A stretch of 64,000 nt of DNA from Actinomycetota bacterium (lineage in GTDB: Bacteria > Actinomycetota > Thermoleophilia > Solirubrobacterales > 70-9). The DNA is taken from positions 1-64,000 of the forward strand of contig JAFDWB010000079.1 of NCBI GenBank assembly GCA_018268675.1, in the 5' to 3' direction. Below are positions 1,751 through 63,558 of the stretch, one piece after another. The translations under genes and the position numbers were made by a program. Numbering within the stretch: position 1 is the stretch's first letter; every line of letters starts with the position of its first letter. The notes under the pieces were generated by a model, which worked only from the letters and a program-made list of their open reading frames with translations, was not told the origin of the DNA and searched no databases.

Positions 1751-1799
1751 GTTGACGGGCCGAAAACCCGTCGGATAGTCCGGTTTTCGGCCCATCAAC
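1751..1799. repeat. Palindromic element family A, copy 1
   Basis: This 49-base hairpin has 18-base arms: GTTGACGGGCCGAAAACC at 1751-1768, pairing with 1782-1799 with one mismatch. The 13-base centre, read on the reverse strand, is GGACTATCCGACG. That matches the centre of copy 2 inside the LeuRS gene (GGACTATCTGAAG), so this copy is in the opposite orientation. Confidence 0.85.
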
Positions 1800-1822
1800 A
1801 CTGGGCGGGCGCACTGGAACCC

Positions 1823-1871
1823 GGTGAGTTCGCGCTTTCCCGCGCTGTCCGCGGGTTTCTGCGAACTCACC
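1823..1871. repeat. Palindromic element family B, copy 1
   Basis: This 49-base hairpin has perfect 11-base arms GGTGAGTTCGC (1823-1833) and GCGAACTCACC (1861-1871), and an inner CCCGCG/CGCGGG stem. It lies 23 bases from a family A copy. The same two families sit side by side again at 28081-28210. Confidence 0.8.
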
Positions 1872-1945
1872 CAGTTGCGGGGCCTGCGACGGGCGCGCCG
1901 ACCGGGCGGCAGCCGGCCGGCGCTCGAGGGACGTTCGTCCCGCGG

Positions 1946-20459: not shown

Positions 20460-22724
20460 ATGAGCGAGAACGCGCGCAAGCCGCCCTACGAGGCTGCCAA
20501 GATCGAGGCAGAGCGCCAGGCCGCCTGGGTCGAGCGGGGCGATTACGAGGCTCCCGCGCCGCCGCCCGACGGCGAGCACGGGGTCTACGTCAAGTCGTCG
20601 AGCCCGTTCACCTCCGGCAACCTCCACATGGGCCACGTGCGCGACTACACCCTCGGCGACGCCTACGCGCGCTTCCAGCGGGCGCGCGGGCGCAGCGTGC
20701 TGATGGGGTTCGGCTTCGACGCCTTCGGGCTGCCCGCCGAGCTCGCCGCGATCGAGCGCCAGGTGCCCGCCGCCGAGTGGGTCGTCCAGTCCGGCGACCG
20801 GATGCTCGAGCAGATGAAGCGGCTCGGCTACAGCTTCGACTACGACCGCGTCTTCTACAGCTCCGACGAGGGGCAGTACCGCTGGTCGCAGTGGCTGTTC
20901 CTGACCCTGTACGAGATGGGGCTGATCTACCTCGACGACGCGACCGTCGACTGGTGCGACACCTGCCAGACGACGCTGGCGACGATCCAGGTCGAGGAGG
21001 GCGGGACCTGCTGGCGCTGCCACAACGAGGTGCGGCTGATCCGCCGGCCGACCTGGTTCCTCAAGATCACGCCCTACCTGGAGGAGAACGACGCGAACAT
21101 GGCGAAGCTCGAGGCGCAGCCCTGGGACGAGCTGGCGCTCGCCACCCAGCGCTACATCCTCGGGCGGGCCGAGGGGGTGGAGGTCGACCTCGAGGGGCCG
21201 GCCGGGCGGCTCACCGTCTTCACGCCGCACGCCGACGCGGCCGGGCTCGCGACCTTCGTCCTGCTGTCGCCCCGCCACCCCGAGGTCGAGGCGTGGATCG
21301 GCGAGGCGGGGGTGCGCGAGGAGCTCGAGCAGCTGCGCTCCGGCGGCTGGGAGCGGAGCGCCCGCGACGCGCAGTCGGTGCCGGTCATCGACACCGGCCG
21401 CGCGATCCCCGGGCCAGCCGGGGAGGAGCTGCCGGTCCTGATCTCGCCGCTGGTCGACGCCCGCTTCGGCCCGACCGCGGCGCTCGGCATCCCGGCGGTG
21501 GACGAGGCCGACGCCGACATCGCATCCCGCTTCCCCGGCCGGGTCCCCGACGTCGATGGGCCGAAAACCGGACTATCTGAAGGGTTTTCGGCCCATCGAC
21601 CTGTGGAGGGGGCGCGGGCGGCGAAGCGGTACCGGGCCAACGACTTCTCGATCTCCCGCCAGCGCTCCTGGGGGACGCCGATCCCGATCGTGCACTGTCC
21701 CGACCACGGGCCGGTGCCGGTGCCGGAGGCCGATCTTCCGGTCGTGCTCCCGCGCGACCTGGTCGCGACCGGTGAAGGGAATCCGCTGGCCGAGCGCAGC
21801 GACTTCGTCGACGTGGAGTGCCCGATCTGTGGGACGCCTGCGAAGCGCGAGACGGACACGCTCGATTGCCACTTCGACGCGCTCTTCCTCTGGGTGCCGG
21901 CCACGGTGCCGCCGGAGGACCGGGCGGAGCGGATGTTCACCCACCCCGAGTCGCGCAGGTGGCTGCCCGCCGAGCGGTTGGTCGCCGGCGGGGACTCGGG
22001 CGGCTTCGTCTTCGACCAGCGGATCGTCACCAAGGCGCTCCGCGACCACGGCGAGTTCGCCTACATGGCCGACGGCGAGCCGTTCGAGGGCTGCCTCTTC
22101 CACGAGATGGTGATCGCCGACGGGCGGAAGATGAGCAAGCACCTCGGCAACGTCGTCGATCCCGACGAACTGGTCGGCCAGTTCGGCGCCGATACCGTGC
22201 GCGTGGCGGTGCTCTGGGCGGCGGGGCCGGCGAAGACCCTCAACTGGTCCGGCGCCGCGGTCCGCTTCGCCAACAAGTTCCTGCGCGGCTTCTGGACCTA
22301 CGCGCACGACCGTTTCGTCGAGCTCGACGCAGCCAGGCACGATCCGGAGAAGGCGGCGGAGACCGAGTTCATGCGCGAGCGCCTGCGCAAGTGGTGCGAG
22401 GCGGGCCTCATGCGGATCACCGAGGACACCGCCGATCTTCAGATGCACCAGTCGATCCGCAACCTGACCCGCCTCTTCGAGCGGATCCAGCAGTTCGAGA
22501 AGCAGCTGAAGAAACGCGGCCAGCTCGACCGCGCCGACGCCGAGGCCCTGGTCGCCGCGATCCTCCTCCTCGCCCGCGTCCTTCAGCCCTTCGCCCCCCA
22601 TGCCGCCGAGGCGATCCTGATCGACTCCGGCCGCTTCACCTCGGCCGACCTCCCCGGCGCCTGGCCCGACGCCGCCGCGATTCCCGTGGCCGTGGACGAC
22701 GCCCTGTCGGGCGCGGCTTCGTAG
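20460..22724 (+). CDS. leuS: Leucyl-tRNA synthetase, divergent: degenerate editing motif, no C-terminal domain, palindromic insertion
   Basis: A 754-residue class I synthetase. The HIGH-type motif is GNLHMGH near residues 55-61 and the KMSKS-type motif is KMSKH near 557. Zinc-knuckle cysteines are present (CDTC, CWRC, CPIC). Compared with E. coli LeuRS the editing threonine motif TTRPDT reads TPHADA, and the HDxRD-like motif reads VDEAD, so editing is probably lost. The protein ends just after the anticodon-binding bundle and lacks the usual C-terminal tRNA-binding domain. Residues 365-380 are encoded by a family A palindrome. This may be a second, specialised LeuRS paralogue; whether it charges tRNA-Leu cannot be told. 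Confidence 0.88.
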   Translation: MSENARKPPYEAAKIEAERQAAWVERGDYEAPAPPPDGEHGVYVKSSSPFTSGNLHMGHVRDYTLGDAYARFQRARGRSVLMGFGFDAFGLPAELAAIERQVPAAEWVVQSGDRMLEQMKRLGYSFDYDRVFYSSDEGQYRWSQWLFLTLYEMGLIYLDDATVDWCDTCQTTLATIQVEEGGTCWRCHNEVRLIRRPTWFLKITPYLEENDANMAKLEAQPWDELALATQRYILGRAEGVEVDLEGPAGRLTVFTPHADAAGLATFVLLSPRHPEVEAWIGEAGVREELEQLRSGGWERSARDAQSVPVIDTGRAIPGPAGEELPVLISPLVDARFGPTAALGIPAVDEADADIASRFPGRVPDVDGPKTGLSEGFSAHRPVEGARAAKRYRANDFSISRQRSWGTPIPIVHCPDHGPVPVPEADLPVVLPRDLVATGEGNPLAERSDFVDVECPICGTPAKRETDTLDCHFDALFLWVPATVPPEDRAERMFTHPESRRWLPAERLVAGGDSGGFVFDQRIVTKALRDHGEFAYMADGEPFEGCLFHEMVIADGRKMSKHLGNVVDPDELVGQFGADTVRVAVLWAAGPAKTLNWSGAAVRFANKFLRGFWTYAHDRFVELDAARHDPEKAAETEFMRERLRKWCEAGLMRITEDTADLQMHQSIRNLTRLFERIQQFEKQLKKRGQLDRADAEALVAAILLLARVLQPFAPHAAEAILIDSGRFTSADLPGAWPDAAAIPVAVDDALSGAAS
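21552..21600. repeat. Palindromic element family A, copy 2, inside the LeuRS coding sequence
   Basis: This 49-base element has perfect 18-base arms GTCGATGGGCCGAAAACC (21552-21569) and its complement (21583-21600), around the 13-base centre GGACTATCTGAAG. It is read in frame as VDGPKTGLSEGFSAHR, at the end of the CP1 editing insertion and before the conserved YRANDFSISRQRSWG return to the catalytic core. Confidence 0.9.
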
Positions 22725-28162: not shown

Positions 28163-28210
28163 GTTGATGGGCCGAAAACCCCTCCTATGGGCCAGTTTCG
28201 GCCGATCAAC
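28163..28210. repeat. Palindromic element family A, copy 3
   Basis: The left arm GTTGATGGGCCGAAAACC at 28163-28180 is the family consensus. The right arm (CAGTTTCGGCCGATCAAC, to 28210) is diverged, so the hairpin is imperfect. It is 48 bases, one shorter than copies 1 and 2. Confidence 0.75.
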
Positions 28211-39053: not shown

Positions 39054-39113
39054 GGGTTGGTTCCGTAGGGGACGGCCGAGGGTCCCGGCCGTTGCCGCCG
39101 TCCGAGGTGGTCT

Positions 39114-39163
39114 CGGGCGCCTCATGGGGGTCCTGGCAGGCTGTGACCCCCATGAGACGCCCG
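39114..39163. repeat. Long hairpin, 19-base arms
   Basis: CGGGCG-C-CTCATGGGGGTC (39114-39132) pairs with 39145-39163 with one mismatch around a 12-base loop. It is the longest stem of cluster 2 and has no counterpart of the same sequence in clusters 1 or 3. Confidence 0.75.
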
Positions 39164-39273
39164 GGACGTGAGGGGTTTCGTGTGGGAGAAGGCACGGGGA
39201 CGGCCGAAGTCGGACTTCCGTGACCCTTCGTTGTGAGGGGAGCGCCCGGGGAGGCGCGGGAATCGAGGCCCGG

Positions 39274-63007: not shown

Positions 63008-63558
63008 GCGGCGGCTTTTGCGCCCGTCCGAGGTGCATCCTGGACGTGAGGGTCCGTGGGGAGCGAACAGGGACGGCACGAAGTCGGACTTCCGTGACGG
63101 TCCTCGCGAGGAGGGGAGCGCTCCCGAGGCCGGGGATCGAGGGGCCCGGAGACCCGCTGAGTGAGTTTTCCACCGTATAGGGGGGCAAAGTCACGCAGCG
63201 TGATTTCACCTTGCCATGTGGCGACCCAGATCCTCGCAGCGCGTTCTCCCCGACCTGGCGCCGTCCAGCTGTTCCTTATGGCCGATATACCGGCATAAGG
63301 AACAGCTGGACGGAGGGCGTCCTCCTGACCAGGACGAGGTCCCCGATCTTCCCGACGTCTATGTCACGAGTTCCCGCTTCGGTGACGGACCCGCGCCGCC
63401 GTCACACTCCCGCGACCCTTCCTCCGCACCCGGCGTCCCGCTGTCGAACTCACCCCGGCGCGCCCCGCCGCCTTCCCTTCCGGACCCTGAAACTTTTGTG
63501 TCGCTTTATCGTCAACTAGCCGGGGAAAAGAGGGGGCGGCGCTAGCCTCGATGCCGCT
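63008..63558. other. Hairpin cluster 3, gene-free
   Basis: A 551-base gap. It holds the core word CGAAGTCGGACTTCCG (63079-63094), a perfect palindrome TCCTCGCGAGGA (63101-63112), a stem around TCACGCAGCGTGA (63191-63203), and hairpin D copy 2 (63261-63313). From about 63314 to 63558 I see no repeat or gene; the bases just before 63559 are AT-richer and may contain the promoter of the next gene. Confidence 0.7.
63265..63309. repeat. Terminal hairpin D, copy 2
   Basis: CCAGCTGTTCCTTATG (63265-63280) and its complement (63294-63309) flank GCCGATATACCGG. The stem extends outward to 63261-63313, giving a 20-bp perfect inverted repeat. One centre base differs from copy 1 at 39393. Confidence 0.9.

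What the first reader, a model, noticed from the sequence alone, without database searches (positions are those of the whole stretch)
21552..21600. A dispersed palindromic element is read in frame inside a leucyl-tRNA synthetase gene
The 49-base element has perfect 18-base inverted arms and the same centre as the intergenic copy at 1751-1799. It translates as VDGPKTGLSEGFSAHR, exactly between the editing domain and the conserved return to the catalytic core. Palindromic elements that stay in frame in proteins are known in Rickettsia (RPE) but I know of none described for this lineage. The linker here is shorter than in E. coli LeuRS, so the element may have replaced part of it.
Basis: partly seen in the sequence, partly recalled or inferred. 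Interest (0 to 1): 0.8.

Follow-up and report, generated by a model that had tools for sequence, protein, structure and literature searches.

The report
In-frame palindromic repeats in Solirubrobacterales genes
A short hairpin-forming repeat, scattered about 70 times through this actinobacterium's genome, sits in frame inside at least ten different protein genes, and each related species carries its own version of the repeat at the same gene positions, which suggests that the copies are continually overwritten within each genome.

Summary
The 49-bp palindrome at 21552-21600 (18-bp perfect arms) is read in frame as residues 365-381 of a LeuRS-like gene. It belongs to a family with at least 69 copies in this genome. 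In 232 genomes of the order it occurs only in one genus of Solirubrobacterales. At least ten unrelated genes carry it in frame (LeuRS-like, NuoG, PurQ, DnaE2, PabAB, HyuA, others), and orthologues lacking it show it is inserted. Inside the element codon usage is foreign (Phe TTT 10/10 against 0/82 outside).

In-frame palindromic repeats are, however, also published for GTAG/CGTC REPs outside Rickettsia, including in DnaE2 and tRNA synthetases (PMC3733652). The element fails the REP tag test, and no Y1 transposase was found in 12 genomes of the genus.

What appears new: insertion sites and reading frames are shared between species, but the centre is species-specific (mean distance 4.9 within species, 10.3 within site, 10.6 for unrelated pairs; permutation p = 1e-4). 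Resident copies therefore seem to be overwritten genome-wide. Enzyme and function are unknown. The gene is a second LeuRS.

The parts
21552..21600 (.). In-frame palindromic element, 49 bp, arms 21552-21569 / 21583-21600, 13-nt centre GGACTATCTGAAG
   Evidence: 71.0 bits, E 1.2e-18; RNA hairpin -44 kcal/mol, z -4.65.
21552..21602 (+). Codons of the inserted peptide VDGPKTGLSEGFSAHRP (residues 365-381 of the LeuRS-like protein), between editing domain and return to the catalytic core
   Evidence: absent in orthologues of G003, G007 and six small-genome species; coil with pLDDT under 50 at 369-377 in the AlphaFold2 model.
20460..22724 (+). LeuRS-like gene (754 aa), second and divergent leucyl-tRNA synthetase with HMGH and KMSK motifs and an editing domain
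   Evidence: tRNA-synt_1; LeuRS editing domain PF13603 at 234-358.
1751..1799 (.). Intergenic copy of the same element, between convergently oriented genes
28163..28210 (.). Third, decayed copy of the element in the window, intergenic between convergently oriented genes
   Evidence: (44.9 bits); one arm seen.
1811..1883 (.). Adjacent imperfect palindrome resembling a second repeat family (GGTGAGTTCGC...GCGAACTCACC) that accompanies intergenic copies
   Evidence: I2; 23 exact copies of this second family in the genome; shared flank modules.

Best explanation
The element is a REP/RPE-type non-autonomous palindromic DNA repeat that has spread through the genomes of one Solirubrobacterales genus. 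Shown: about 30-100 copies per large genome; copies inside genes are in frame and lie in variable loops; related genes lack the block; the sequence is constrained as DNA, not as protein (foreign codons, paired changes in the stem); intergenic copies favour 3'-3' (convergent) spacers; sites and reading frames are shared between species while the centre is species-specific. Inferred: the repeat inserts by an unknown trans-acting activity; copies survive only where harmless, that is between gene ends (where its GTTGA arm often supplies the stop codon) or in frame in surface loops; copies are later overwritten by the locally dominant version, by gene conversion between dispersed copies or by re-insertion into resident copies. 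In-frame copies are assumed to be translated into a 16-17-residue surface loop with no function of its own, which may later decay by in-frame deletion.
For: Copy number and structure. In-frame insertions in unrelated genes: gene identities. Empty orthologous sites. Remnants left by in-frame loss: DnaE2 of G008, and probably glucoamylase of G006. Foreign codons: Lys AAA 10/10 against 2/21, Phe TTT 10/10 against 0/82, Ile ATA 4/6 against 0/92; GC3 0.53 against 0.92. Stem pairing kept through two-sided changes at pairs 17-33 to 20-30, and alternative inner stems between species. Location: 29 convergent against 4 divergent spacers (p = 1e-5); the element supplies the flanking stop codon in about 8 copies; no split gene among the close same-strand pairs read. 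Species-specific centres at shared sites: (within species 4.9, within site 10.3, neither 10.6 of 25 positions; p = 1e-4; no site effect, p = 0.41). The loop is disordered in the LeuRS model.
Against: No mobilising enzyme was found: Y1_Tnp is absent from all 12 genomes of the genus, and nearly all arms listed pair at 49 bp, so no longer autonomous version with the same ends is visible. No target-site duplication could be defined, and coding insertions often replace or lose 5-8 residues of target. Intergenic copies sit in longer mosaic repeats (59 of 116 flanks have colinear relatives) while coding copies do not (0 of 22), which simple transposition of one unit does not explain. Translation of the peptide is not demonstrated. 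The in-frame count is partly built in, because candidates were found by open reading frame. All genomes of the genus are metagenome assemblies as far as named. In G008 the centres are not homogenised.
Confidence: 0.8

Rival explanations
1. Functional binding site or RNA hairpin: the palindrome is the recognition site of a species-specific protein (nucleoid, regulatory or RNA-processing factor), and the centre co-evolves with that protein in every copy, so shared positions reflect selection and not overwriting of selfish DNA.
For: Species-wide uniform centres at shared sites; stem kept by paired changes; bias to convergent 3' spacers; strong hairpin.
Against: Five of the six small-genome species in the same genus have no or one copy by the loose pattern; copies are gained or lost per site between close species; the host genes share no function; a binding site would hardly need 18 base pairs of stem.
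Confidence: 0.15
2. Independent recent insertions into the same preferred sites in each species, without overwriting.
For: Would also give shared sites with species-specific centres; the PurQ site is filled in G000, G006, G011 and the distant G010 but empty in the others.
Against: All ten sites of this genome are also filled in at least one other species, in the same frame, with no obvious target motif at empty sites; remnants and decayed versions at the same sites (G008 DnaE2, G001 and G004) point to old insertions.
Confidence: 0.2
3. Classical REP mobilised by a REP-associated tyrosine (Y1) transposase.
For: Similar genome distribution, supply of stop codons and intragenic copies as described for REPs (PMC3733652).
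Against: No PF01797 match in any of 12 genomes, with positive controls; no unpaired GTAG or CGTC tag, ends GTYGAY...RTCRAC are paired; almost perfectly symmetric.
Confidence: 0.08
4. The element is left out at translation: ribosomes bypass it, as reported for palindromes in mitochondrial genes of the yeast Magnusiomyces, so the protein lacks the peptide.
For: A very stable hairpin inside conserved genes; bypassed palindromes are known in that yeast (cited in PMC6649704).
Against: Every coding copy found is open in frame, and the frame containing TGA is used only where TGA is mutated; bypass would not require this.
Confidence: 0.03

Closest known systems
Rickettsia palindromic elements (RPEs)
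   Same: Dispersed palindromic repeats found in frame in many unrelated protein genes; several families in one lineage (PMC10969869).
   Different: Here 49 bp against about 150 bp; GC-rich actinobacterium; no sequence relation detected; RPEs are reported to lose repeat identity with time (PMC6649704), here copies stay uniform within most species.
GTAG- and CGTC-tagged REPs, including intragenic REPs
   Same: Mostly in convergent and unidirectional spacers, ends supply stop codons, some copies lie inside ORFs including DnaE2 and tRNA synthetases; in Xanthomonas recB different REPs sit at about the same site (PMC3733652).
   Different: No unpaired tag at one end; longer symmetric stem; no Y1 transposase found; that paper's lists of phyla do not name Actinobacteria; conserved outer arms with species-specific inner stems at shared coding sites.
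MITEs
   Same: Short inverted-repeat, non-autonomous, intergenic and sometimes in-frame intragenic.
   Different: No parent transposon with the same ends and no target duplication seen.
Coding palindromes of Nematomorpha mitochondria; bypassed palindromes of Magnusiomyces mitochondria
   Same: Stable inverted repeats inside protein genes.
   Different: Organellar; the yeast elements are bypassed, not translated (PMC6649704).

Membership tests
Rickettsia palindromic elements (RPE) | Palindromic repeat in frame within several unrelated protein genes | tested here: met
   At least ten genes in this genome.
Rickettsia palindromic elements (RPE) | Homology to a described RPE family | tested here: inconclusive
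   No RPE-type model matched the LeuRS protein in NCBIfam or Pfam, but a 17-residue peptide is too short for a firm test; RPE DNA was not compared.
Rickettsia palindromic elements (RPE) | Length of about 150 bp (as reviewed in PMC10969869) | tested here: not met
   Core is 49 bp.
GTAG/CGTC REP super-families | Unpaired GTAG or CGTC tag at one end of the stem-loop | tested here: not met
   Both ends GTYGAY / RTCRAC are paired; flanking positions show no such tag.
GTAG/CGTC REP super-families | Predominantly in convergent or unidirectional spacers, some intragenic | tested here: met
   29 convergent, 22 unidirectional, 4 divergent, 11 inside ORFs.
GTAG REP with RAYT | Y1 (HUH) transposase of the RAYT/IS200 type in the genome | tested here: not met
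   PF01797: 0 of 12 genomes, positive controls found; genomes are incomplete.
MITE | Terminal inverted repeats shared with an autonomous transposon | tested here: inconclusive
   Nearly all arms in the listed part pair at 49 bp; the list was cut at 100 of 126 places.
MITE | Target-site duplication | tested here: inconclusive
   No constant duplication at junctions; flanks have changed since insertion.

The most novel reading that the evidence does not exclude
A self-overwriting (self-homing) palindrome: an unknown activity recognises the shared outer arms GGGCCG...CGGCCC and copies the locally dominant version into resident elements across the genome, including those inside protein genes. Each species' proteins thereby acquire their own version of the same inserted peptide at conserved positions, without new insertion.
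Probability: 0.35. Interest if true: 0.82.

Novelty: new variant of a known kind. Interest (0 to 1): 0.64.

Why it matters
It brings protein-coding palindromes, best known from Rickettsia and some REP families, to a GC-rich actinobacterial lineage, with insertions in central genes such as PurQ, NuoG and DnaE2. It also offers a natural experiment: the same gene sites filled with different versions in different species. That makes the open question of how such repeats spread and stay uniform testable, by separating insertion from later overwriting, and it shows a route by which genomes add short peptides to existing proteins.

Tried and rejected
Chance palindrome: rejected. Known RNA family: Rfam found only tRNAs in the window. 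RAYT/IS200-type mobiliser: not found. Longer parent element with the same ends: no sign in 100 of 126 listed half-sites. Gene disruption by out-of-frame copies: the close same-strand pairs I read are separate genes, not split ones. Extended pairing beyond 49 bp: outer 20 nt of left and right flank pair no better than random flanks (7.3 against 7.7 of 20). A first motif count in the flanks used a pattern that was too strict and was replaced by flank clustering. A tree of ten concatenated proteins did not resolve the six element-rich species (support 0.18-0.79), so the number of gains and losses per site could not be fixed. The first LeuRS alignment had some loci in the wrong orientation and was redone. 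Virus scan: one hit, which looks like host DNA beside tRNA-like sequence and an integrase gene. Ogata 2002 (PMC186582) is not held.

Full report
THE OBSERVATION. The palindrome at 21552-21600 is real: GTCGATGGGCCGAAAACC, 13 nt, GGTTTTCGGCCCATCGAC, with 18/18 arm pairs. ORF 20460-22724 reads through it from its first base and gives residues 365-381, VDGPKTGLSEGFSAHRP. The window holds two more copies, at 1751-1799 and, decayed, at 28163-28210. As RNA the element folds at -44 kcal/mol, z -4.65 against shuffles.

THE GENE. The protein is a leucyl-tRNA synthetase by Pfam and by best PDB matches, but not the main one: it scores under the curated LeuRS cut-off, and an ordinary LeuRS of this genome lies on contig C91 at 36-38% identity to it. 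The window protein is a second LeuRS found in the genus and some relatives. In the AlphaFold2 model (mean pLDDT 80.9) residues 357-385 are coil and 369-377 fall below pLDDT 50, between well-predicted domains. So the element codes for a flexible linker loop. The linker is 25 residues between aligned segments against 55 in E. coli.

COPIES AND RANGE. The genome (4.2 Mb, 95 contigs; its nearest named relatives are Solirubrobacterales metagenome assemblies) has 48 copies with exact 12-nt arms and at least 69 by covariance model; only the 150 best candidates were scored, so this is a minimum. In 232 genomes of the order the GGGCCGAAAA version is confined to one genus: 91, 65, 60, 42, 36 and 29 copies in six species with about 4-Mb genomes, and one copy in G010. 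Named relatives include Solirubrobacterales bacterium 70-9 and the SZAS isolates. A looser pattern shows that G010, a small-genome species, has 35 copies with the same outer arms and the same length but another inner stem (GGGCCGATTTCGGG...CCCGAAATCGGCCC), and three others have single copies.

IN-FRAME COPIES. Eleven of the 69 copies lie inside ORFs with coding signal on both sides (gene calls): LeuRS-like, NuoG, PurQ, PabAB (one good and one decayed copy), HyuA, DnaE2, a glucoamylase-like protein, and three membrane proteins, one of them GT87. Protein names without a Pfam match (glucoamylase-like, two membrane proteins) are my reading of the sequence. Seven read as VDGPK..FSA, two as MGRK/TGRK..FRPI and two as RAEN..GPS; the third frame contains TGA and is used only where TGA is mutated. 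Orthologues in other species of the genus lack the block in NuoG, PurQ, PabAB, HyuA, DnaE2 and LeuRS, while flanks align. Inserted codons are foreign to the genome. The DNA sequence, not the peptide, is therefore what is kept. Caution: candidates were picked by open frame, so 'always in frame' is partly by construction; but the close same-strand neighbours that I read are distinct genes, not halves of one.

INTERGENIC COPIES. Of the rest, 29 lie between convergent genes, 22 between co-directional genes and 4 between divergent genes (convergent against divergent p = 1e-5). In about eight copies the GTTGA arm provides the stop codon of the neighbouring gene, twice for both neighbours. Half of the intergenic flanks (59 of 116) share colinear sequence with other copies, typically out to about 100 nt, in a few modular types, against none of 22 coding flanks. 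One accompanying module is a second palindrome family, GGTGAGTTCGCA...TGCGAACTCACC, with 23 exact copies; none of the 15 loci read was inside a gene.

SHARED SITES, SPECIES-SPECIFIC CENTRES. For ten coding sites I compared 40 elements in six species, then 43 with G010. Centres are alike within a species at different genes (4.9 of 25 differences) and hardly more alike at the same gene between species (10.3) than between unrelated pairs (10.6); shuffling species within sites never reached the observed value in 10,000 trials. G011 is nearly uniform (0.86), G008 is not homogenised (10.5). Reading frames at a site are the same in all species, including G010 at MptB, GTb and PurQ. Decayed or partly deleted elements at the same sites in G008 DnaE2, G001 GTb and G004 MptB suggest old insertions. 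Inner stem pairs change on both sides. I read this as old insertion plus later overwriting of the core. Independent insertion at preferred sites is not excluded: the PurQ distribution is patchy, and the six-species tree is unresolved.

MECHANISM. Shown: insertion relative to orthologues, frame compatibility, DNA-level constraint, species-wide uniformity, 3' bias. Inferred: mobility, copying over resident elements, translation, lack of a host function. No Y1 transposase was found in 12 genomes with working positive controls. Other families of palindrome occupy the same membrane-protein linker in G002 and G005, in frame, with 8 copies of one of them in G005, so that linker accepts many insertions.

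COMPARISON WITH THE KNOWN. RPEs of Rickettsia are the classic case (PMC10969869). The 2013 survey of GTAG and CGTC REPs already reports intragenic copies in several bacteria, convergent bias, stop codons from repeat ends, and targets including DnaE2 and tRNA synthetases (PMC3733652). The present family works like these but is not a member: it lacks the unpaired tag and the Y1 enzyme, is a longer symmetric palindrome, and lies in a phylum not named there. I found no paper describing it in this lineage, within an open-access library only.

Noticed in passing
window 20460-22724; G000:C91:87388-89643: Two leucyl-tRNA synthetase genes in one genome; the window copy is a divergent second LeuRS found in the genus and some relatives.
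   Followed up: partly
window 1811-1883; 23 places: A second dispersed palindrome family (GGTGAGTTCGCA...TGCGAACTCACC) often next to intergenic copies of the first, forming mosaic repeat islands.
   Followed up: partly
L189 534-581 and 827-870 (G005), L183 461-510 (G002): Unrelated palindromes (TGGTTGTCCTTTGTC...GACAAAGGACAACCA and a relative) in frame at the same membrane-protein linker; G005 has two copies in that stretch.
   Followed up: partly
window 63261-63313 and 39110-39167: Further strong inverted repeats (20-nt perfect arms CCGTCCAGCTGTTCCTTATG; 23-nt arms at 91%) that may belong to other repeat families.
   Followed up: no
L113 (G000:C91 places 13851 and 14410): One PabAB fusion gene carries two elements in frame, one intact and one decayed, in different reading frames.
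   Followed up: partly
L268 41-77: The only viral-collection hit of the element lies at a contig end near tRNA-like sequence and a tyrosine integrase gene, probably host DNA flanking a provirus.
   Followed up: partly
L256: A Solirubrobacterales-type LeuRS on a contig labelled Chlamydiae bacterium, probably a mis-binned metagenome contig.
   Followed up: no
L081 (G000:C59:27185): An aminotransferase-like gene ends inside the element (AAVDGPKTRL*), so its C-terminus is encoded by the repeat.
   Followed up: no
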